Virus record (IMG/VR): IMGVR_UViG_3300024999_000117 | Coordinates: 1-59,177 of that record | DNA length: 59,177 bases | Direction: 5' to 3' (one strand) | DNA from: a virus | Part shown: positions 5,288 through 15,341 of the stretch, in pieces | Layout of the letters: every line of letters begins with the position of its first letter | Position numbering within the stretch: position 1 is the first letter of the stretch | Translations under genes and position numbers: made by a program | Notes under the pieces: generated by a model | Told to the model about the DNA's origin: nothing | Database searches by the model: none | What the model saw: the letters and a program-made list of their open reading frames with translations, nothing else

Positions 5288-5869
5288 TCACCCTTTTAGT
5301 TCGTCGGTCAGTTTGTGAAACATTTCAATAAATTGCTTTTTTGCTTCCTGCGGCGATAACCCTAAAACAGGTTTAAGCTTTAGATCTAAACCAGTTATAC
5401 TCTTTGCCCAATTCTGATTATTAGGCATGATATTTTTGGCTTCATACTTTAAAAGAGCGTTATCAATATCCCTGAGCATGTACGATAAATGGTTTTTGGT
5501 CTCCGGGGTTAAACCGAAAGCCTCAAATATAGCTTTTTGTACTTTATACTCTAACCCGACATAGTAACCGATATGCCGTTTAATAGGTCTAGGTATATCG
5601 CAAATGTATGCCTCTGCCGCGTCGTGTAACAATCCTCTAAGTTGCACTCCAGGGTAATAATCTCTAGCTGCTAACTCCTTAGCAACAATGATACTATGCT
5701 CAGCAACGCTATAAAACCTTGAACAGTGACCATTGAAACGACACTGCATAGATAACGAATGAGCAATATCCGAAATATCAACGTCCTCTGGCCTCGGGTC
5801 TAAAGGCCAGAACTGCTTACCTGTAAATGTTTCTATAAAGTCACCGATACGTTCAGTCAAACTGGCCAC
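5288..5869 (-). CDS. HD-domain phosphohydrolase (YfbR-like)
   Basis: 193 residues. The HD signature is complete: H in FYSVAEHS, LLHDAAEAY, and a downstream D in MLRDIDNALL. Length and the start of the protein match YfbR/HDDC2-type 5'-nucleotidases that act on deoxynucleoside monophosphates. In a phage this would adjust the nucleotide pool. It overlaps the Dam gene by 13 bp and sits in the replication operon. Substrate is not determinable here. Confidence 0.8.
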   Translation of the reverse strand: MASLTERIGDFIETFTGKQFWPLDPRPEDVDISDIAHSLSMQCRFNGHCSRFYSVAEHSIIVAKELAARDYYPGVQLRGLLHDAAEAYICDIPRPIKRHIGYYVGLEYKVQKAIFEAFGLTPETKNHLSYMLRDIDNALLKYEAKNIMPNNQNWAKSITGLDLKLKPVLGLSPQEAKKQFIEMFHKLTDELKG

Positions 5870-6315
5870 CTCCTGAATATAACAACCATACTGGGAAACG
5901 GTGCACTATTTTTAGCACCACCAAACTTAAGTCGGCCTTTTAAAAATCTCAACTCTATCCCGGGTCGTGTCTGGTGTTTTTCACAATCCCAAATATACCT
6001 GTGAAAATACTTTGTGTCAGTTCTGGCAGGTAAGAGCATAACAACGGTAGTCCCAATCTTAGATTCAGTTACCGCTTTCTCTATCCACAGACCAATTTCT
6101 TTACCGTAAGGCGGGTTACACCAACAGGATCTAAAAAGCCACCAGTCCTGAGACAATCCGTCGTCCGAAAAGTTGAAATAGGTTTCACATTTAGCGTTGT
6201 TTGCCTCAGCGCAAACATCTACATCAAAGTTAAATTCAAAATTCAATTGGTCAAATAGCTCCTGTGGCGTCTCCCATTCTGAACTGTCCGAGGAAAACAA
6301 AGCTTTATCTACCAC
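5857..6315 (-). CDS. Phage DNA N6-adenine methyltransferase (Dam type)
   Basis: 152 residues of the phage Dam family (PF05869 type). Visible features are the EWETPQELFDQLN opening, F-D-V-D-V-C-A, and the catalytic N-P-P-Y (CWCNPPYGKEIG), followed by VVMLLPARTDTK. It transfers a methyl group to adenine N6 in DNA, usually protecting phage DNA from host restriction. GTG start with GGGGTG upstream. Lies downstream of another methyltransferase, which together with the C5 enzyme gives the phage three DNA methylases. Confidence 0.9.
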   Translation of the reverse strand: MVDKALFSSDSSEWETPQELFDQLNFEFNFDVDVCAEANNAKCETYFNFSDDGLSQDWWLFRSCWCNPPYGKEIGLWIEKAVTESKIGTTVVMLLPARTDTKYFHRYIWDCEKHQTRPGIELRFLKGRLKFGGAKNSAPFPSMVVIFRRWPV

Positions 6316-6327
6316 AAATTCACCCCA

Positions 6328-7287
6328 CTATGACAGTAAATCATCTATTTCTTTTTTAATCTCCTCTACAGCAATATCTAAATTGCTAACCGATTGATTG
6401 AAATATGATTCTTTTAACTCAATACCGACAAATTTTCTACCTAATCCTAAGGTTGGATAACCCTCGCTACCGATACCAGCAAACGGGCTACAAACGATAT
6501 CTCCAGGGTTAGACCACAATTTAACTGCCCTCTCCACAACGTCAAGTTGCAACGGGCAAATATGCTTTTCGTCCTGGTCATCACGGGCCAGTTTGCAGTT
6601 CAGTACGTTCATTTGGTTTATATCAAACCATACCGCGATTGACGGAAAGTTCTTAATAAAATCCTTAGTAACGTTTATATCCTTATCGTCGAACCAAAGA
6701 GGAGAAGCGTAATTCTGCCAATCACTGAGTGGAAAAGTTTCCTCAGTATGAGTGACCGGCTCAGGGTCTACGTAGTCATCTGCCCATTTCCTAAAAAGCA
6801 ACAAGTAATCTGGCAGGCCTGTCCTACTATAGCAGCTATCCTTCCTGAGCTGTTTATACAGTAGGCCGTGGCTTTTTGTCCTCTGCATTTCTGTAACTGG
6901 ACTTTTCCAAATCAGCACTTCCGCATGGTAGGTAAAACCGTGCTTTTGATGTAACCGGATAATCTCACCCCGGAAGTCCCTAAGTCCTGCCTTGCCATCC
7001 CTACCCTTGTAGTTAACCAGTTGCTTACAGTGGACTGCTGCAAGCCGGCCAGGAACCAAAGTCCTGTATGTTTCGCCTACCAGATAATTATAGTGTTTAA
7101 AGAACTCTTCGTCGTTCTTGCTGTTACCCATGTCTGCAATACTACTACTGTAGATATATAAACTACTGAAAGGTGGTGAGTATAAATGTAAGTGGACACT
7201 ATCGCTTGGTAACCCTTTCAGCACTTCACACGAATCACCATTATACATAGTGTAGAAATCTGTTATTTTTTGGTCTAATACTTTCAC
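6328..7287 (-). CDS. DNA methyltransferase, SPPF type (probable N4-cytosine)
   Basis: About 319 residues. The catalytic motif reads S-P-P-F (LYSPPFSSLY), characteristic of N4-cytosine enzymes, and near the C-terminus lies the SAM-binding region SPFAGIGSEGYP with KFVGIELKESYF. The catalytic motif precedes the SAM motif, so beta-class order. I start at the GTG at 7287, which overlaps the stop of the upstream helicase (GTGA), giving tight coupling. An in-frame ATG further upstream lies inside the helicase gene. The C-terminus ends in IDDLLS, shared with the protein encoded at 8670-8999. Confidence 0.85.
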   Translation of the reverse strand: MKVLDQKITDFYTMYNGDSCEVLKGLPSDSVHLHLYSPPFSSLYIYSSSIADMGNSKNDEEFFKHYNYLVGETYRTLVPGRLAAVHCKQLVNYKGRDGKAGLRDFRGEIIRLHQKHGFTYHAEVLIWKSPVTEMQRTKSHGLLYKQLRKDSCYSRTGLPDYLLLFRKWADDYVDPEPVTHTEETFPLSDWQNYASPLWFDDKDINVTKDFIKNFPSIAVWFDINQMNVLNCKLARDDQDEKHICPLQLDVVERAVKLWSNPGDIVCSPFAGIGSEGYPTLGLGRKFVGIELKESYFNQSVSNLDIAVEEIKKEIDDLLS

Positions 7288-8654
7288 GTGACACCCCCAA
7301 TTAACCACTCGGGTAGTAGCATTTTTAAAGTTGGGCAATAGTCAAGTCTGTGTTTTTTGTCCTGCATAAGAGCGTGGTTTTTCAGCATCCCACCAACCAT
7401 ACCCTTTTTCATTTCCTCAAATAAAGTTTCTTTGGTCCGGACGATATCAAGGATCTGCTTTTCTGTTTCACCAATAACTATGTGGCAGTTAACCACTTTG
7501 TCCTGACCAAAACGCCAAAACCTTCTAGTCGCCTGGTAGAAAGATTCATAGCTAAAACTTAACCCGCAAAATACAACATTACGGCAGTTCTGAAAATTTA
7601 ACCCAAAACCGAATATTGAAGGTTTGCTAATTAACACTCTTATTTTCCCAAACCTGAAATCCTTAGCTGCCGTTTCTTTTTTAATCGTGCTGTCACTGCC
7701 GCGAACGTCTACAGCATCAGGAATGGTTTTTTTCAGAGCGTCGGCCTCATAGTTTGTATCACACCAGATTGTATATTGTTCATCTGTCCGACTAACTATC
7801 TCCGCGCACTTAGCTACCCTATCGAGTAAAGTTTGCCGCTTCTCTCTGTGGTAGGTAGTAGCATTTAGCTTTGTCAGTTGGGACGGTTCAGCTATAGGTA
7901 AAATCTCTTCGATAATATTGAGTGGAGGTAAAGTATATCCCTCGTCTGAATAGCCCAGGTCACTCGGCCTGGATATACTGACAGCCCAATCTGATACCCA
8001 GTTCCAAAAGTCGTCTACAGCATGGCCTTTGAGCTTGTACTTACCCATGTTCATTGTATCGTTTATAAACCATACCGCCAGGGCCTCATGGCTTTCCATC
8101 ACATTTAAGAAAGCCGCATGATTCAATATTTCCATGTGGTCATTAGGCGAAGGTGTGGCTGTACAAGCCAACTTAAACTCAGTATGTTTAAAGGCTCTAA
8201 TAATCTGTTGTTTAATTTTCCCGCTGTAGGATTTCAGTATTGACGATTCATCTAACACAACACCGGCAAACTGGTCAGGATCGAACTTATGCAACATCTC
8301 GTAATTCGCTATGTTGACACCTGGTCTTACATCTGCTTGTTCCCGGCATATAGTTGTCTCAATCCCAAACTTTACACCTTCGTCGTGGGTCTGCTGTGCT
8401 ACAGACAGTGGTGCTAGAACCAGTACATCACCAAAAGTATCTTTACACACTTGGTCTCCCCATTCAAGCTGCATAGCGGTTTTACCAAGTCCGCAATCAG
8501 CGAAAACAGCAGCCTTTCCTTTCCCAATTGCCCATTTCACAATATCCTTTTGAAAAGGGAATAGTTTAGGATTAATGTCTTCCGGATAAATATTAAAACC
8601 TTTGTTCTGTACCAATATCTTTTTGCTTTCAAGAAAAGCCTCGTAATCAGTCAA
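7284..8654 (-). CDS. SNF2/DEAD-like helicase coupled to methyltransferase
   Basis: 456 residues, a second superfamily 2 ATPase, distinct from the one at 994-2373. Walker A is in FADCGLGKTAMQL near residue 54; the Walker B box is VVLDESSILKS; C-terminal motifs include FGFGLNFQNCRNVVF and the arginine finger region QATRRFWRFGQ. TTG start with GAGGTG. Its stop overlaps the start of the SPPF methyltransferase. Helicase-methyltransferase coupling is common in phage replication blocks; whether they act together is unknown. Confidence 0.85.
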   Translation of the reverse strand: MTDYEAFLESKKILVQNKGFNIYPEDINPKLFPFQKDIVKWAIGKGKAAVFADCGLGKTAMQLEWGDQVCKDTFGDVLVLAPLSVAQQTHDEGVKFGIETTICREQADVRPGVNIANYEMLHKFDPDQFAGVVLDESSILKSYSGKIKQQIIRAFKHTEFKLACTATPSPNDHMEILNHAAFLNVMESHEALAVWFINDTMNMGKYKLKGHAVDDFWNWVSDWAVSISRPSDLGYSDEGYTLPPLNIIEEILPIAEPSQLTKLNATTYHREKRQTLLDRVAKCAEIVSRTDEQYTIWCDTNYEADALKKTIPDAVDVRGSDSTIKKETAAKDFRFGKIRVLISKPSIFGFGLNFQNCRNVVFCGLSFSYESFYQATRRFWRFGQDKVVNCHIVIGETEKQILDIVRTKETLFEEMKKGMVGGMLKNHALMQDKKHRLDYCPTLKMLLPEWLIGGVT

Positions 8655-9454: not shown

Positions 9455-11212
9455 TTATACAACGTTTCTAACATCTGAGCATAACTCCGGTAAATTTGCC
9501 CCAACAAGGTGCTCGGCTAACTGCGGTGGTACGGCATTTCCGCATCTAGCTACTTGGTTAGCTTTAGAAAATTTATTACCCTCCGCGTCACGGTCGATAA
9601 TATAAGTCTCTGGAAATCCTTGCGCCGCGAAAAGCTCGTGCGGCTCCAGCATCCTCATTCCGATATCAACTATTTGGTATTCCTGTCCTTGAACAGTTAC
9701 CAGTCCAAACCTGTGTTTTGTCGTAATAGTGTGAAGTGGCTCAGTAAGTACCTGCCCTGTATCTGCCCCATAGTATTTCAGCAGGAACGCCCTAACTTCT
9801 CCCATATGGGTACCACCAGCGGAAACCGTGTGAAGTGGCTCCTTAACTGGTTGACCTATATTCATACCAGGACCGGTACCGCGGAATTTAATTAGGTGAC
9901 TGGTTACAAGAGCAAAACGGTTAGACGTGTCAACTGTTTTTATTGGTTCGTCAGGCAGTTGCCCTCTGACTCCAGTTCCAGGCGTTTCACCGTGATACTT
10001 CGAGAGAAAAGCGGTTACCAGAGCGTTGTGGTCAGTGGTCGTAACTGTGTGTATCGGCTCCCCTAAGCTACTACCAGGACCTGTATAATTGCCGCCGTAG
10101 TGTTTAGCTAAAAAAGCTGTAACTAACTGTGATTTGCCCATGCCTCCAGCTGTGATTGTCCCCAGCGGGTCAGTTACGCTGTGACCAACGCTTTGCCCGA
10201 ATTGACGGGCTATCACAGGAGTAATCAGTAAATGCTCTGCCTTTGTCGTGACTGTGGTCAATGGCTGTTCTACCTGGTACTGCATCCGATCACCGCCAAA
10301 ACCTGTCTGGCCAATTCGCACTATAAACGGCTTGGGATTATCTATAACAAACTTCTGGATACCCCTGGCAATACGCCGCATAGTGTTCTCAGCCAGTGGC
10401 CTTTTTCGCTCAAAAATACTCGGGCAGGGTAAGGACCAGTCAATAATCTCGGCAGCCGTCCTCCAAGGCAGAAGTTTACCAGATTTCACCTCTGCGCTCT
10501 CTGGATTGCCGTGTGTTGGCTTTGGCCAAACAATCGGCCTGCCGTCGCATCGAGCAATTAGGAAAAACCTCTTTCGGATAGTAGGCGCCCCATAATCACA
10601 AGCCCGTAACTCTTTATGCTCTACCTGATAACCTTGCCGCTTAAGCGCATTGATGAAAGAATTAAACGTCCGGCCTTTTTGTTTCGGATCTGGGATAAGT
10701 ATGCTTTGGTCGGGCGGAACAACTTCTCCTGATTCGGATACGATGATTTTGTCATCCTCGTCTTCATCTTCAGAACGTATGAGCTTTAACATTCGTCCTG
10801 TTTTTAGATCTGTCTTTGCAATTAGTGGTCCCCATGTTTTGAATTCCTCGACATTTTCGAGAATAATCACTCGGGGTCGGACGGTGGCTGCCCATCTGAC
10901 AGCTACCCATGCAAGCCCTCGGATATGCTTCTCAACCGGCTTGCCACCTTTGGCCTTTGAAAAATGTTTACAGTCCGGACTGAACCAACATAACGCAACT
11001 GGCCTGCCTTTCGTAGCTTTTCTTGGGTCTACATCCCAAACAGATTCACAAAAATGCTCGGTGTCAGGATGATTTACCTTGTGCATGGCAATAGCTACAG
11101 GATCATGGTTTATGGCTATGTCTACCGACATACCTATTGCCAGTTCAATTCCTGTCGATGCCCCGCCACCTCCAGCGAAGTTGTCCACAATAATCTCTCT
11201 AATTCTTATCAC
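9455..11212 (-). CDS. C5-cytosine DNA methyltransferase with internal repeats
   Basis: 585 residues. SAM motif I is FAGGGGASTGIE near residue 13, the catalytic cysteine lies in SPDCKHFSKAKGG, followed by ENVEEF and RKRFFLIA. Between the catalytic core and the terminal motifs (GFPETYII and GNAVPP) lie about five copies of an approximately 45-residue repeat with the pattern LVTAFLxKYxG and PxHTVTT. This replaces the usual target-recognition domain and is typical of one phage subfamily. The first start is a GTG overlapping the stop of the small upstream membrane gene; the exact start is uncertain. Confidence 0.9.
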   Translation of the reverse strand: MIRIREIIVDNFAGGGGASTGIELAIGMSVDIAINHDPVAIAMHKVNHPDTEHFCESVWDVDPRKATKGRPVALCWFSPDCKHFSKAKGGKPVEKHIRGLAWVAVRWAATVRPRVIILENVEEFKTWGPLIAKTDLKTGRMLKLIRSEDEDEDDKIIVSESGEVVPPDQSILIPDPKQKGRTFNSFINALKRQGYQVEHKELRACDYGAPTIRKRFFLIARCDGRPIVWPKPTHGNPESAEVKSGKLLPWRTAAEIIDWSLPCPSIFERKRPLAENTMRRIARGIQKFVIDNPKPFIVRIGQTGFGGDRMQYQVEQPLTTVTTKAEHLLITPVIARQFGQSVGHSVTDPLGTITAGGMGKSQLVTAFLAKHYGGNYTGPGSSLGEPIHTVTTTDHNALVTAFLSKYHGETPGTGVRGQLPDEPIKTVDTSNRFALVTSHLIKFRGTGPGMNIGQPVKEPLHTVSAGGTHMGEVRAFLLKYYGADTGQVLTEPLHTITTKHRFGLVTVQGQEYQIVDIGMRMLEPHELFAAQGFPETYIIDRDAEGNKFSKANQVARCGNAVPPQLAEHLVGANLPELCSDVRNVV

Positions 11213-11336: not shown

Positions 11337-13292
11337 TCAATCATCCTTTTTATAGTACATTCCTGAAAATCCGTCAGCAGGAGTAGGAAGATCTGGCGCC
11401 CACTTGATAGGCTGTCCCATGATCTCGTTAAGCTCCTTCAAGCTGCCCCAACCTACCGGCACATCACAAACTATTTCATCGTGCACATGTGCCGCAATCC
11501 GATAACCCGCAGCATCAACCCTGATAAGTGCTTCGGCAAGGCAATCTCTGGCTATTGCTTGAATTACATTTTCCACCAATTTGCCTCCGTATGTGTCAAC
11601 CTTCGACCAAACCTTTTTCACTTGATCCATGCCCCAGTAAGTCAATTTTGGTCTATTGAATCGTGTGTCGTTTTCAATTGCTGCTTTGCAATACGCCAAT
11701 CTCCTGCCCGATGGTAGCTTGATGAACAAAATACCTGACTCAAAACTAAACGTAACGCCGTACTGCAGTTGCACTACCTTCCTGTCTTTGACGGCTGATA
11801 TGGCTGCCTTCTCTACATCTTTCCACAGGCGCACTATGGCTGGATTAGCTGCCCTCCAGGTACTGACCAACTCAGGCAGTTCTTCCTCAGTCAAACCCAT
11901 TTTCAAAGCACCCATTGTTACCAATGCCCCAACGCCGCCTTGGTAGCCAAGGGCCAGCTCAGAGATCTTACCTTTTTGCCTCAAAGGGTTTGCCTTCGTG
12001 ATAGACTCCAAGGGAACCTTAAACATTTGGGAAGCAGACGCTTCATATATCTTGCCGTGTGTCCTGAACACTTTCATGCGCCACTGTTCACTGGCCAGCC
12101 AAGCTATAACTCGGGCTTCAATTGCACTGAAATCTGAAACGATAAATCGGCAACCAGCAGACGGGATGAAAGCGGTTCTAATTAGTTGGGATAAGACATT
12201 TGGGACGCTATCAAACAACATTTCCAGTATTTCATAATCACCCGATAGTAGGAAATTACGCGCCATGTCCAAGTCACGCATACTGTTTTTGGGCAAGTTC
12301 TGAAACTGAACAATTCTTCCAGCCCATCTCCAGGTTCTATTAGCACCGCAAAACTGAAACAAACCTCTGACCTTGCCATCCTCTCTGACGGCTCTTATCA
12401 TAGCGTCATATTTCTTTACTGAGGTTTTAGCCATAGTTTGACGTAATATCAGCATCTTTTTAACCGTGTTATTTTTAGTGGTTTTAATCAGTTCTGCTAC
12501 GGTTTCCTTATCCAGGCTGTCAACCTCTATACCTTCTTGTTCAAATATCCAGTTTTTAAGTTGCGCAACGCTATTCGGATTGTCTAAATCTGTCAGCTTT
12601 TTAGTTTCTTCTGTTTTTCGTGCTTGAAACTGCAGATCACACTCAATGGCGTTTTCAACTAACTTTCTGTCTATCTTAATCCCTGTATCGTTAATCTTTT
12701 GGTCTAAGCACCAGAGTTTATGTTCGTGTTCAGGAACGGGAAACTTCTCAAGTTTCTTTCTTATATCACGTTCTACAACAACGTCCTGCCTGCAGTATTC
12801 CTTGAATTGTTCCCATTTTTCCGGGCTATGTTCAGGCAGGTTCCTTGTCCTCCTACCGTTGGCTTTTGTAGGTTTGCAAGGAGTGCAGAAATATTTAATT
12901 AGCGCCTTTCCTGCCGTGTCTTTTTGCTGCTCCAAGCCCAGCACCTTAGCAACATCCTCTAACCTTCCAGGCAGCCCTAAAGTTAACGCATGAACTGCCG
13001 TACAGCGCCAAAACATAGGATCAACTGGTAACCATAGGTGTTCGTTAATACATAGCCGTTCAAAATTTGCGTTATAGGCTGTTTTGATAATGTTCGGGTC
13101 AATCAAAGCATCTGTAACATCTTTGTGTAGTGACTCGCCGCTGGCCAGGTCAACAACCTGGACTGGATCATCATCAAAAGCAAATCCGAACAAGATTATT
13201 TCAAAATCCGGCGAAGCTACGTATTTGTAGGCACCCGAGGTTTTTATATCTACACTGCTAAAAGTTTCTAAATCTATACTGAGAATAGTCAA
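11337..13292 (-). CDS. Family A DNA polymerase (phage replicative type)
   Basis: 651 residues. N-terminal 3'-5' exonuclease begins with SIDLETFSS (DxE, Exo I), and polymerase motifs are complete: motif A SDFSAIEARVIAWL, motif B around NPLRQKGKISELALGYQGG, motif C HVHDEIVCDV. It copies phage DNA with proofreading. TTG start overlapping the TGA of the DpdA-like gene, with AAAGGA upstream. Together with primase-helicase, DUF2815 and DUF2800 it forms the phage replication core. Confidence 0.93.
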   Translation of the reverse strand: MTILSIDLETFSSVDIKTSGAYKYVASPDFEIILFGFAFDDDPVQVVDLASGESLHKDVTDALIDPNIIKTAYNANFERLCINEHLWLPVDPMFWRCTAVHALTLGLPGRLEDVAKVLGLEQQKDTAGKALIKYFCTPCKPTKANGRRTRNLPEHSPEKWEQFKEYCRQDVVVERDIRKKLEKFPVPEHEHKLWCLDQKINDTGIKIDRKLVENAIECDLQFQARKTEETKKLTDLDNPNSVAQLKNWIFEQEGIEVDSLDKETVAELIKTTKNNTVKKMLILRQTMAKTSVKKYDAMIRAVREDGKVRGLFQFCGANRTWRWAGRIVQFQNLPKNSMRDLDMARNFLLSGDYEILEMLFDSVPNVLSQLIRTAFIPSAGCRFIVSDFSAIEARVIAWLASEQWRMKVFRTHGKIYEASASQMFKVPLESITKANPLRQKGKISELALGYQGGVGALVTMGALKMGLTEEELPELVSTWRAANPAIVRLWKDVEKAAISAVKDRKVVQLQYGVTFSFESGILFIKLPSGRRLAYCKAAIENDTRFNRPKLTYWGMDQVKKVWSKVDTYGGKLVENVIQAIARDCLAEALIRVDAAGYRIAAHVHDEIVCDVPVGWGSLKELNEIMGQPIKWAPDLPTPADGFSGMYYKKDD

Positions 13293-14188
13293 TTGGTCAC
13301 TTCCTTTAAAGCCTGAAGGTATACGTTAATATTGTGAACGGCCCTACCCATGTTACGCTCGTTACTGCCCATCTCTCTTGTGTCTAAACCTATCGAACGG
13401 ATAACCTCACAGGCAGGGCAGTTGCATATCGGTATTTGTTCTTTAGCTAATTCTTTAACACTGTATTTTTTAATGCCGCCACCACCACTACTGAGGTCTA
13501 AAGCGTAGTAACTCGCTCCAGTAAAAGCACTAAAAAACATTGAACTTCCGTCAAAGCTGTCTATGCAGTACTGCTTATACTCCCGTACCCAACGGATTGA
13601 TGAAATACCTAAGACGTGTATTTTGAAAGGTTGCTGCTGTCTTAGTTTACATACCGCTTCTAGTACAGAATGGATATATTTTTTCGCCCCGGCTCTACCG
13701 GCCACACCACCTATGGCTAGATATTTGTAACCCATCTCTAAGAGTTCCTGAGCCGCCATAAGGCGTGTATCCAAACTATTGCCGTGTATTACACCAACCG
13801 GTATTACACCCTTAGGAACTAACTTTATAAACTCTCTCGCATTGTCTAAAGTTATATTGAGTCTGTACAGTTCTTCCTCTGGCGTATGGTTCCTTAAAAC
13901 CATGTGGTCAGGTGAAGCAACCATATCACCAGGGCAGGCTAGTTTCCTATACATAGCAGCGCACCCTGCCGGACCCCATTTCGGTTCCGGTAGATGCTTG
14001 TAACTCCAGGCACCGCAATCAAAAAATATTTGTTTCGCATGAGGTGGCAGCGGTAAATTTTTACTATAGATAAGGGATGTTAAAAACTGCTCCGGAAAAG
14101 GATTAATATATTTCCAAATTGGTTCTTTAACCCCGTTTATTTTTAGATGATCCCTATTCCCGATAACGCAAAAGAATCTAGGTTTCAT
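13289..14188 (-). CDS. dpdA: TGT-superfamily base-exchange enzyme (DpdA-like)
   Basis: 299 residues. It follows the tRNA-guanine transglycosylase plan: D57 in FDCGAWS (catalytic), SPDHMV (91-96), VGVIHGNS (131-138) where TGT has the substrate loop, LAIGGVAGR (157-165), HVLGISS (191-197), and D213 in SFDGS where TGT has its nucleophile. A complete zinc site C255-x-C257-x2-C260 with H285 closes the fold. In phages this family (DpdA) swaps guanine in DNA for a 7-deazaguanine such as preQ0. No queuosine synthesis genes are visible, so the base would come from the host. Its start overlaps the DUF4326 gene stop and its stop overlaps the polymerase start. The DNA-acting role is inferred; gene symbol is provisional. 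Confidence 0.78.
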   Translation of the reverse strand: MKPRFFCVIGNRDHLKINGVKEPIWKYINPFPEQFLTSLIYSKNLPLPPHAKQIFFDCGAWSYKHLPEPKWGPAGCAAMYRKLACPGDMVASPDHMVLRNHTPEEELYRLNITLDNAREFIKLVPKGVIPVGVIHGNSLDTRLMAAQELLEMGYKYLAIGGVAGRAGAKKYIHSVLEAVCKLRQQQPFKIHVLGISSIRWVREYKQYCIDSFDGSSMFFSAFTGASYYALDLSSGGGGIKKYSVKELAKEQIPICNCPACEVIRSIGLDTREMGSNERNMGRAVHNINVYLQALKEVTN

Positions 14189-15015
14189 CTCAACAGATCT
14201 TCCAATTCTCTAGCCTGCCGGTCACGCTCAACGAGTGCTTTGTACCTATCCACATCAACCTTCTGAACAATCCAGTCCTTTGCCTTGGTAGAAGTCTCAA
14301 CAAACCCGGCAACCTTAGCAACTCCGTACCCCCTCACAGTATGGCACACAACCGGGTCATCAATCTTTAGATCCAAGTCAGTGAAGAAGTCATATTTGAC
14401 TTCGTTATTTCCCGCAAAAGTGACTTGAGCTATTTTCTTAACATCGACTAATACATCGCTACCTGATAATTTCTCATTATCTCGTCTAAGTTCGTGAATA
14501 GCGGAAGTTAGTGATTTACATTTATCCTCAAAACCGCACATACTACAAGGGATGTTACAACTTAGTGCGTCCATATATTGATCTTTAATAGGACATAGTT
14601 TTAACCTGCAATTTCCTTCACAATCATCAGTATTCAGCGGATGGTTACAAAAAACTAATACAGGAGAGGAACGATCTTCTACCCCATCTAAATCCTTCTC
14701 AAACATACAATTTTGATGTTTGCAACCTTTACCATACCACTCTCTCAATTTATCAACTCCCAAACTATTAGCTAATTTAGCTAAAACATCACCGTGGCAA
14801 AGTTTTGGTTTACACCAGCATCCAAGCGTCTTTCCTTTCAAATCATGTAGATCATTCAGCAAATCCGGTCTCAACAAGATGTGTTTTTCGTACTTGCCAA
14901 TAACCTCTTGCCGGGATCCATCCCTACCAATCAGAAAAGGGTTGCCCCACTTTGATGGCCTGCCGATGTAAACATCAAACTTTTTACGTTTGCAATGAAC
15001 TACTTTAGTTTTCAA
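14185..15015 (-). CDS. DUF4326 protein with cysteine-rich middle
   Basis: 276 residues. Residues 1-85 show the DUF4326 pattern: YIGRPSKWGNPF, then a helix, then LGCWCKPKLCHGDVLAKL. Residues 95-175 are rich in paired Cys (CKHQNC, CNHPLN, DDCEGNC, LCPIKD, CSMCGFEDKC), suggesting one or two metal or Fe-S sites. The C-terminal part looks like a small beta domain followed by a helix. The stop overlaps the DpdA-like start (ATGA), so both are made together. DUF4326 is of unknown function; joint action in base modification is inference from coupling. Confidence 0.75.
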   Translation of the reverse strand: MKTKVVHCKRKKFDVYIGRPSKWGNPFLIGRDGSRQEVIGKYEKHILLRPDLLNDLHDLKGKTLGCWCKPKLCHGDVLAKLANSLGVDKLREWYGKGCKHQNCMFEKDLDGVEDRSSPVLVFCNHPLNTDDCEGNCRLKLCPIKDQYMDALSCNIPCSMCGFEDKCKSLTSAIHELRRDNEKLSGSDVLVDVKKIAQVTFAGNNEVKYDFFTDLDLKIDDPVVCHTVRGYGVAKVAGFVETSTKAKDWIVQKVDVDRYKALVERDRQARELEDLLR

Positions 15016-15299
15016 GGCAATCTATTGCACCAGTCTTTAAATTCAGATATCAGGACTTCCAGAAACCTAGCTTCGTGCTTCATAGGTTCAAGGTATGCTT
15101 TAGAACTACATTCATGCGAACCGCCCATATGAAACATCTTGTCACGTAATTTATCTTCAAGGTTCTTAACAACCCGGCCCATCATATCTTTAGCACCAAA
15201 ATGGCGGTTTTTATCGCTTAGATCTGCCACCTTAGCCAGCAGATTAGACATTTCATTGATTATTATTTTTAATTCTTTAGGAGGCTCCAAACAGTTCAA
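15012..15299 (-). CDS. Small helical protein upstream of the DUF4326 gene
   Basis: 95 residues, mostly helical, with a H-M-G-G-S-H-E-C segment in the middle that could bind metal and an F-K-D-W-C end. TTG start; the Shine-Dalgarno AAAGGA is close, so a slightly later start is possible. Overlaps the DUF4326 gene by four bases and therefore belongs to the same three-gene unit as the DpdA-like enzyme. Family not recognised. Confidence 0.6.
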   Translation of the reverse strand: MNCLEPPKELKIIINEMSNLLAKVADLSDKNRHFGAKDMMGRVVKNLEDKLRDKMFHMGGSHECSSKAYLEPMKHEARFLEVLISEFKDWCNRLP

Positions 15300-15311: not shown

Positions 15312-15341
15312 CAGGCGGGTAGCGGTTTTGTTACCCGCCTG
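15312..15341 (-). terminator. Strong hairpin between DUF2815 and the DpdA unit
   Basis: A perfect 10-bp stem, CAGGCGGGTA pairing with TACCCGCCTG around a 10-base loop, directly after the DUF2815 gene. No T-run follows on the minus strand, so it may be an attenuator or RNA-stability element that separates the DUF2815 messages from the DpdA/DUF4326 unit. Confidence 0.6.

What the first reader, a model, noticed from the sequence alone, without database searches (positions are those of the whole stretch)
13289..15299. DpdA-like base-exchange enzyme coupled to a DUF4326 protein
Seen: the TGT-type protein at 13289-14188 keeps both aspartates (D57, D213) and the full C-x-C-x2-C...H zinc site, and is joined by overlapping start/stop codons to a DUF4326 protein and a third small protein, all inserted between two replication genes. 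Known: phage TGT relatives (DpdA) put 7-deazaguanines into DNA and block restriction. Inference: this three-gene unit modifies phage DNA with a host-supplied preQ0/preQ1-type base, and DUF4326 plus the Cys-rich region may act on the inserted base or serve as DNA-binding partner. I know of no assigned function for DUF4326.
Basis: partly seen in the sequence, partly recalled or inferred. Interest (0 to 1): 0.85.

Follow-up and report, generated by a model that had tools for sequence, protein, structure and literature searches.

The report
Phage DNA-base swapper from plasmid/phage clade
A temperate virus of bacteria (probably Bacillota) carries a small enzyme that, by sequence, structure prediction and family tree, most likely swaps guanine in DNA for a 7-deazaguanine base made by the host; it belongs to a rare, undescribed branch shared by phages and plasmids, while the neighbouring DUF4326 gene is probably an unrelated passenger.

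Summary
At 13289-14188 (-) a 299-aa TGT-fold protein keeps the catalytic aspartates (D57, D213, plus D94) and the CxCxxC...H zinc site. It overlaps a DUF4326 gene and a 95-aa orphan, all between an ssDNA-binding protein gene and DNA polymerase A. The DNA-modifying reading is supported: best solved relative by sequence and fold is DpdA (7ui4), and grouping with tRNA TGTs is rejected (AU p=7e-5). It is not DpdA proper, though (NCBIfam 118.7 bits, cut-off 200). It sits in a distinct clade of TGTs on phages and on Deinococcus/cyanobacterial plasmids. There the usual partner, fused or next door, is DUF6884, a domain of the DpdC (dPreQ0 to dADG) type, not DUF4326. DUF4326 is a widespread phage domain (T4 NrdA.1; 2200 of 50,697 phage records) and is absent from every other clade member examined. 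Two related phages carry this DUF4326 gene at the same spot without a TGT. The 'three-gene base-modifying unit' is therefore not supported; a stand-alone base-exchange enzyme using host preQ0 is. No queuosine-pathway gene was found in the window. The product base is not established.

The parts
13289..14188 (-). DpdA-like DNA-guanine transglycosylase, 299 aa (TGT core only)
   Evidence: PF01702 4.8e-9; NCBIfam DpdA 118.7 bits, below cut-off 200; PADLOC DpdA 2.2e-32; top fold hit 7ui4 DpdA E 2.9e-13; 98/98 clade with plasmid TGTs
14018..14020 (-). codon of D57 (DCGAW motif; TGT general acid/base aspartate position)
   Evidence: alignment with TGT/DpdA; invariant in ten clade members from phages
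13907..13909 (-). codon of D94 (PDH motif; base-recognition aspartate position)
   Evidence: alignment
13550..13552 (-). codon of D213 (SFDGSS motif; nucleophile aspartate position)
   Evidence: alignment
13334..13426 (-). zinc site C255-x-C257-x2-C260 ... H285, enclosing the clade signature DTRxxGSNExNMGRAxHN
14185..15015 (-). DUF4326 protein, 276 aa: DUF4326 (residues 4-80), Cys-rich linker, C-terminal domain (194-272)
   Evidence: PF14216 4.7e-27; phrog_464 7.4e-35 and phrog_3489 3.2e-11; homologues in L026 and L027 without a TGT. Probably not functionally coupled to the TGT
14776..15006 (-). DUF4326 domain with CWCKPKLCHGD motif (T4 NrdA.1 family)
14200..14436 (-). C-terminal domain of the DUF4326 protein (phrog_3489-like), conserved in L026 and L027; the Cys-rich linker between is not
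15012..15299 (-). 95-aa protein of unknown family, overlapping the DUF4326 gene
   Evidence: no family above cut-off and no phage relative
15354..16055 (-). Enc34-type ssDNA-binding protein, upstream boundary of the variable slot
   Evidence: PF10991 3.6e-76
11337..13292 (-). DNA polymerase A, downstream boundary of the variable slot
   Evidence: PF00476 2.1e-20; phrog_17 1.3e-149
15314..15340 (.). inverted repeat between the ssDNA-binding protein gene and the inserted genes, conserved in related phages
   Evidence: 27/27 identical to L026, 93% over 30 in L027, both in inverted orientation

Best explanation
The protein at 13289-14188 is a stand-alone DNA-guanine transglycosylase of a distinct phage/plasmid clade related to DpdA. 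Inferred mechanism: made from the replication operon, it binds DNA, the D213 carboxylate attacks C1' of a deoxyguanosine and releases guanine, and a free 7-deazaguanine (most likely preQ0 from the host queuosine pathway) is joined in its place. This would give patchy dPreQ0 or a derivative in phage DNA and reduce cutting by host restriction enzymes, alongside the phage's three DNA methyltransferases. In most relatives a DpdC-like DUF6884 domain would hydrolyse dPreQ0 to dADG; this phage lacks it, so dPreQ0 itself is the expected product. The enzyme is an accessory gene placed in a variable slot between the ssDNA-binding protein and polymerase genes. The DUF4326 gene beside it occupies that slot in related phages without a TGT and is judged not to be part of the base chemistry. 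Shown: fold class, catalytic residues, clade, gene context, lack of detected que genes. Inferred: DNA as substrate, preQ0 as base, anti-restriction role.
For: Top solved relative by sequence and by fold is the preQ0 insertase DpdA 7ui4. NCBIfam DpdA 118.7 bits against 21.8 (Tgt) and 19.9 (arcTGT). A clade of window plus three tRNA TGTs is rejected, p=7.3e-5. H191 corresponds to the His196 that PMC6884629 names as conserved in DpdA; E. coli and Zymomonas TGT have Tyr there, archaeal TGT has His. Clade members are on phages and plasmids and several are beside replication genes: ssb (L015, L045), DNA Pol III genes (L016), SSB and polA (window). DUF6884 is fused or adjacent in L014, L017/L018, L047, L048/L050, L051/L052, L053, L054, L056 and scores to PADLOC DpdC; DpdC hydrolyses dPreQ0 to dADG (PMC12839542). 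The nearest plasmid relative lies next to dpdE and dpdF, with QueC on the same plasmid. 9g dpdA alone put host preQ0 into plasmid DNA (PMC6884629). DUF4326 without TGT in L026 and L027.
Against: No biochemical test exists for any member of the clade. The NCBIfam DpdA equivalog cut-off is not met. No DpdB-like or other dpd gene was found, although DpdB is reported dispensable in some clusters (PMC12839542). The window may be incomplete (linear record), so que genes could lie outside it. The host is unknown; its preQ0 supply is an assumption. The tree used only three tRNA TGT rows, one of them a fragment.
Confidence: 0.7

Rival explanations
1. The three overlapping genes work as one pathway: the TGT inserts a base and the DUF4326 protein (with its Cys-rich part) acts on that base or on the modified DNA. 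DUF4326 would stand where DUF6884 stands in relatives.
For: Overlapping start/stop codons. Burroughs and Aravind predict DUF4326 to bridge NAD-type signalling with DNA modification (PMC7824862, PMC9503650). The window lacks the DUF6884 partner.
Against: Same DUF4326 gene at the same slot without a TGT in L026 and L027; no other clade member has DUF4326; the family is widespread in phages including T4; tight overlaps are usual in phage operons.
Confidence: 0.12
2. The enzyme modifies tRNA (host or phage), for example placing preQ1 or preQ0 at a wobble or D-loop position to tune translation during infection.
For: TGT fold and full zinc site as in tRNA TGTs; archaeal TGT is the second-best sequence and fold hit.
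Against: Grouping with tRNA TGTs rejected; DpdA profile far ahead of the tRNA TGT profiles; fusion or linkage to DpdC-like DUF6884 and to dpdE/dpdF in relatives; placement among replication genes; no tRNA genes in the window.
Confidence: 0.1
3. The enzyme is a counter-defence or superinfection-control factor: it changes 7-deazaguanine marks on host or competing DNA rather than protecting its own genome, or acts as part of a prophage-borne defence.
For: Temperate phage (S24 repressor and serine integrase); DUF6884 of relatives matches the PADLOC defence candidate PDC-M57A; the Deinococcus relative sits in a dpd island.
Against: No restriction component (DpdD-K) was found in the window; its operon position among lytic replication genes suggests lytic expression.
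Confidence: 0.06

Closest known systems
Bacterial DpdA (NCBIfam NF041059; PDB 7ui4, Salmonella Montevideo)
   Same: TGT fold, D/D/D active-site motifs, zinc CxCxxC...H, best profile and fold match
   Different: 299 aa against about 440: lacks the insertion before the zinc site and the N-terminal extension; 118.7 bits against cut-off 200; separate branch (100/100); no DpdB or DpdC in the window
Phage DpdA of the 9g/CAjan/Dp-1 type
   Same: Phage-borne, base-exchange motifs, near replication genes (9g dpdA next to the polymerase processivity factor and DNA polymerase)
   Different: 9g and Dp-1 sequences lack the zinc site; they come with FolE/QueD/QueE/QueC; placing the window alone with this group is weakly rejected (p=0.045), though the whole clade plus this group is not (p=0.30)
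Plasmid and phage TGT / TGT-DUF6884 proteins (L014-L018, L045, L047-L057)
   Same: Full-length relatives at 30-48% identity with the same signature DTRxxGSNExNMGRAxHN in phage members; the actual family of the window protein
   Different: Most have DUF6884 fused or as next gene; the window has none
DUF4326 (PF14216; T4 NrdA.1 family)
   Same: PF14216 94.9 bits, CWCKPxxCHGD motif
   Different: Window protein adds a Cys-rich linker and a C-terminal domain shared with L026 and L027; no link to TGT elsewhere
tRNA-guanine transglycosylases (bacterial Tgt, archaeal TgtA)
   Same: Fold, catalytic aspartates, zinc site
   Different: 21.8 and 19.9 bits against cut-offs 306.75 and 350; clade rejected

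Membership tests
DpdA (NCBIfam NF041059 equivalog) | Score at or above the curated cut-off of 200 bits | tested here: not met
   118.7 bits over residues 45-229
DpdA (NCBIfam NF041059 equivalog) | Catalytic aspartates and zinc ligands conserved | tested here: met
DpdA (NCBIfam NF041059 equivalog) | Inserts preQ0 into DNA | not testable with these tools
   needs LC-MS of DNA
dpd modification-restriction island | dpdB and dpdC (and dpdD-K) in the same locus | tested here: not met
   no DndB/DGQHR- or YaaA/DUF6884-type family in Pfam scans of the main window ORFs; PF21818 search of the window empty
Phage DpdA with preQ0 pathway (9g type) | FolE, QueD, QueE, QueC encoded by the phage | tested here: not met
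   QueC absent by HMM; none of the others listed in Pfam scans; record may be incomplete
Phage DpdA with preQ0 pathway (9g type) | Groups with 9g-type DpdA in a tree | tested here: not met
   separate starred clades; window plus that group p=0.0445, whole clade plus that group p=0.30
tRNA TGT | Groups with bacterial/archaeal tRNA TGTs | tested here: not met
   AU p=7.3e-5 for the window, 0.008 for its whole clade; only three tRNA TGT rows
Mobile-element TGT clade (this work) | Full-length similarity and signature after the zinc cysteines | tested here: met
   98/98 with plasmid members, 100/100 with phage members added, signature
Mobile-element TGT clade (this work) | DUF6884 partner, common but not universal | tested here: not met
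   PF21818 search of the window empty; also absent in L015, L045, L016, L049, L055, L057
DUF4326 | PF14216 over cut-off | tested here: met
   94.9 against 25 bits
DUF4326-DpdA functional pair | Co-occurrence beyond chance | tested here: not met
   1 of 29 other TGT/DpdA phage or viral records (nt-1) against a background of 2200/50697

The most novel reading that the evidence does not exclude
The clade is a third, self-contained kind of DNA 7-deazaguanine machine spread by plasmids and phages: TGT plus DpdC-like DUF6884, often in one polypeptide, living on the host's preQ0. The window's member would be a version that has lost DUF6884 and deposits a different base, possibly finished by an unknown enzyme such as the DUF4326 or 95-aa protein.
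Probability: 0.3. Interest if true: 0.65.

Novelty: new variant of a known kind. Interest (0 to 1): 0.5.

Why it matters
7-deazaguanine DNA marks were known from dpd islands and from phages that mostly also make preQ0. A separate TGT clade that travels on phages and plasmids, mostly without a QueC gene in the record and often fused to a DpdC-like domain, suggests a minimal, transferable DNA marking kit that could hide mobile DNA from restriction. It gives a small enzyme and a two-domain fusion that can be tested directly in E. coli. It also removes DUF4326 from the list of likely 7-deazaguanine partners.

Tried and rejected
DUF4326 structure prediction (four sequences) was useless: pLDDT 37.8, pTM 0.25, so no fold claim is made. 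Searching solved structures with the DUF4326 protein gave nothing. PF01702 does not detect the divergent viral DpdA proteins of L008-L013, so 'no TGT' in DUF4326-bearing records means no TGT close to this clade; the region between SSB and polymerase in L026 and L027 was also read directly. The protein search had no positive control. A second clade scan of viral contigs added only one partial contig, so the clade is rare in IMG/VR at this sensitivity. Haloarchaeal plasmid TGTs, fetched as possible archaeal TGTs, lie beside a BREX-type ATPase and were kept only as tree rows. Considered and rejected: overlapping codons as evidence of a functional unit; grouping with tRNA TGTs; full dpd island membership.
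Full report
WHAT IS THERE. The window is an IMG/VR virus record of 59,177 bases, linear. It encodes terminase, portal, capsid, tail, amidase, holin, an S24-type repressor and a serine integrase, so it is a temperate tailed phage. Its terminase is about 52% identical to a Parageobacillus phage and its polymerase A about 60% identical to Brevibacillus and Clostridioides phages, pointing to a Bacillota host. A second contig (IMGVR_UViG_3300025009_000342) encodes identical proteins. The three ORFs of the finding exist at the stated coordinates with 4-base overlaps.

THE ENZYME. 13289-14188 matches TGT (PF01702, 4.8e-9). Against solved proteins the best hit is DNA-guanine transglycosylase DpdA (7ui4, 3.4e-9), then archaeal TGT (0.0013). 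NCBIfam: DpdA 118.7 bits (cut-off 200), tRNA Tgt 21.8, archaeal TgtA 19.9. PADLOC DpdA 2.2e-32. AlphaFold2 with 11 sequences gives pLDDT 87.8 and pTM 0.87, and Foldseek ranks 7ui4 first (2.9e-13), archaeal TGT second (4.4e-10) and other TGTs after. The motifs DCGAW (D57), PDH (D94), HG (H135), GG, SFDGSS (D213) and CxCxxC...H (C255, C257, C260, H285) are kept. H191 aligns with residue 196 of 9g DpdA, the position at which PMC6884629 describes a conserved DpdA histidine. Bacterial tRNA TGTs have Tyr there; archaeal TGT also has His.

ITS FAMILY. Among annotated phage genomes only a DpdA of a gut phage is similar at E<=1e-3. On plasmids there are full-length relatives of about 300 aa: Deinococcus taeanensis (37%, fused to DUF6884, next to dpdE and dpdF), Chroococcidiopsis (32%), Gloeothece, and TGT-DUF6884 fusions on Nostocales conjugative plasmids. 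An alignment of these found eleven further viral contigs (L047-L057) at 37-47% identity over nearly the full length; two pairs of them have identical TGT sequences. Ten aligned phage members, window included, share DTRxxGSNExNMGRAxHN after the zinc cysteines. The window groups with the plasmid proteins at 98/98, and the enlarged clade separates from bacterial DpdA at 100/100. Holding the window with three tRNA TGTs is rejected (p=7.3e-5), as is holding the whole clade with them (p=0.008); the exact relation to bacterial and phage DpdA is not resolved.

ITS USUAL PARTNER. DUF6884 is fused to or directly follows the TGT in L047, L048/L050, L051/L052, L053, L054, L056 and on the L014, L017 and L018 plasmids. 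DUF6884 is distantly related to YaaA (PMC11701544) and was found as the domain of dpdC in dpd islands (PMC11888242). The clade's DUF6884 regions also score weakly to PADLOC DpdC. DpdC (described there as DUF328/PF03883, the YaaA family) hydrolyses dPreQ0 to dADG (PMC12839542). So the clade looks like a base-insertion plus base-finishing kit; that reading is inference. The window, L049, L055, L057, L015, L045 and L016 lack DUF6884. On the tree this needs at least four changes, consistent with repeated loss or gain. QueC is absent from the window and from most clade records, but present on the Deinococcus plasmid and in the L054 phage. No Pfam scan of window ORFs listed FolE, QueD, QueE or QueF.

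DUF4326. PF14216 is clear (4.7e-27), but it is the T4 NrdA.1 family and is present in 2,200 of 50,697 phage records. Besides the window's own phage, it was found in 0 of 15 viral TGT/DpdA records, 1 of 3 named DpdA phages (nt-1, annotated nrdA.1) and 0 of 11 clade phages: 1 of 29, close to the background of 4.3%. Two related phages (L026 and L027, polymerase 82-83% identical) carry a DUF4326 gene with the same C-terminal domain in the same slot and no TGT. phiCDKH02 and LunBun have nothing between the gene in the ssDNA-binding-protein position and polymerase. The slot is a variable insertion site and the TGT a cargo gene in it. PMC9503650 and PMC7824862 predict DUF4326 to be a rhodanese-phosphatase-type enzyme linked to ADP-ribose and DNA-modification conflicts. 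From memory, not readable here: a later paper by the same group places it in a RapZ-C/DUF488/DUF4326 clade with predicted DNA-end processing. No experiment is known to me.

MECHANISM. By analogy with TGT/DpdA chemistry: covalent attack of D213 on C1' of dG, release of guanine, and attack by a 7-deazaguanine from the host pool. 9g DpdA expressed alone put host preQ0 into plasmid DNA (PMC6884629), so no partner is strictly needed. Without a DpdC-like domain the expected product here is dPreQ0. Expected benefit: partial restriction resistance, added to three methyltransferases (Dam-type, N6/N4-type, C5). Substrate, base and benefit are inferred and untested.

VERDICT. Observation confirmed; DNA-type base exchanger supported; coupling with DUF4326 not supported. 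New variant of a known kind: a rare phage/plasmid TGT clade with a recurrent DUF6884 partner that the window's copy lacks.

Noticed in passing
window 15314-15340: Inverted repeat between the ssDNA-binding protein gene and the inserted genes; identical over 27 bases in L026 and 93% over 30 in L027, both in inverted orientation; no T-run follows, so not a classic terminator.
   Followed up: partly
L054 5995-7350 and L059 6480-10457: One 148.7-kb phage carries both a TGT-DUF6884 fusion and, more than 100 kb away, a QueC-bearing cluster that includes a second, DpdA-like TGT-type ORF and a separate DUF6884 gene.
   Followed up: partly
L055 7499-8203, L057 6912-7625: Two clade members without DUF6884 are followed by similar genes; the one in L057 is DUF6610 (8e-25). 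A possible alternative partner.
   Followed up: no
L043 2087-5171, L044 2090-5159: Haloarchaeal plasmids with a 344-aa TGT followed by a hypothetical gene and a BREX-type ATP-binding protein; resembles TGT-bearing BREX-related systems described in PMC12839542.
   Followed up: partly
window 5857-6315, 6328-7338, 9455-11212: Three DNA methyltransferases of different types in the same replication module.
   Followed up: no
L047 4956-5480; L059 4977-5471: A DUF1643 gene (2.5e-37) lies half a kilobase upstream of the L047 TGT, and a similar-looking ORF lies near the QueC cluster of the L054 phage.
   Followed up: no
window 14200-14436: C-terminal domain of the DUF4326 protein (phrog_3489-like) is strongly conserved in related phages while the Cys-rich linker before it is not.
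   Followed up: no
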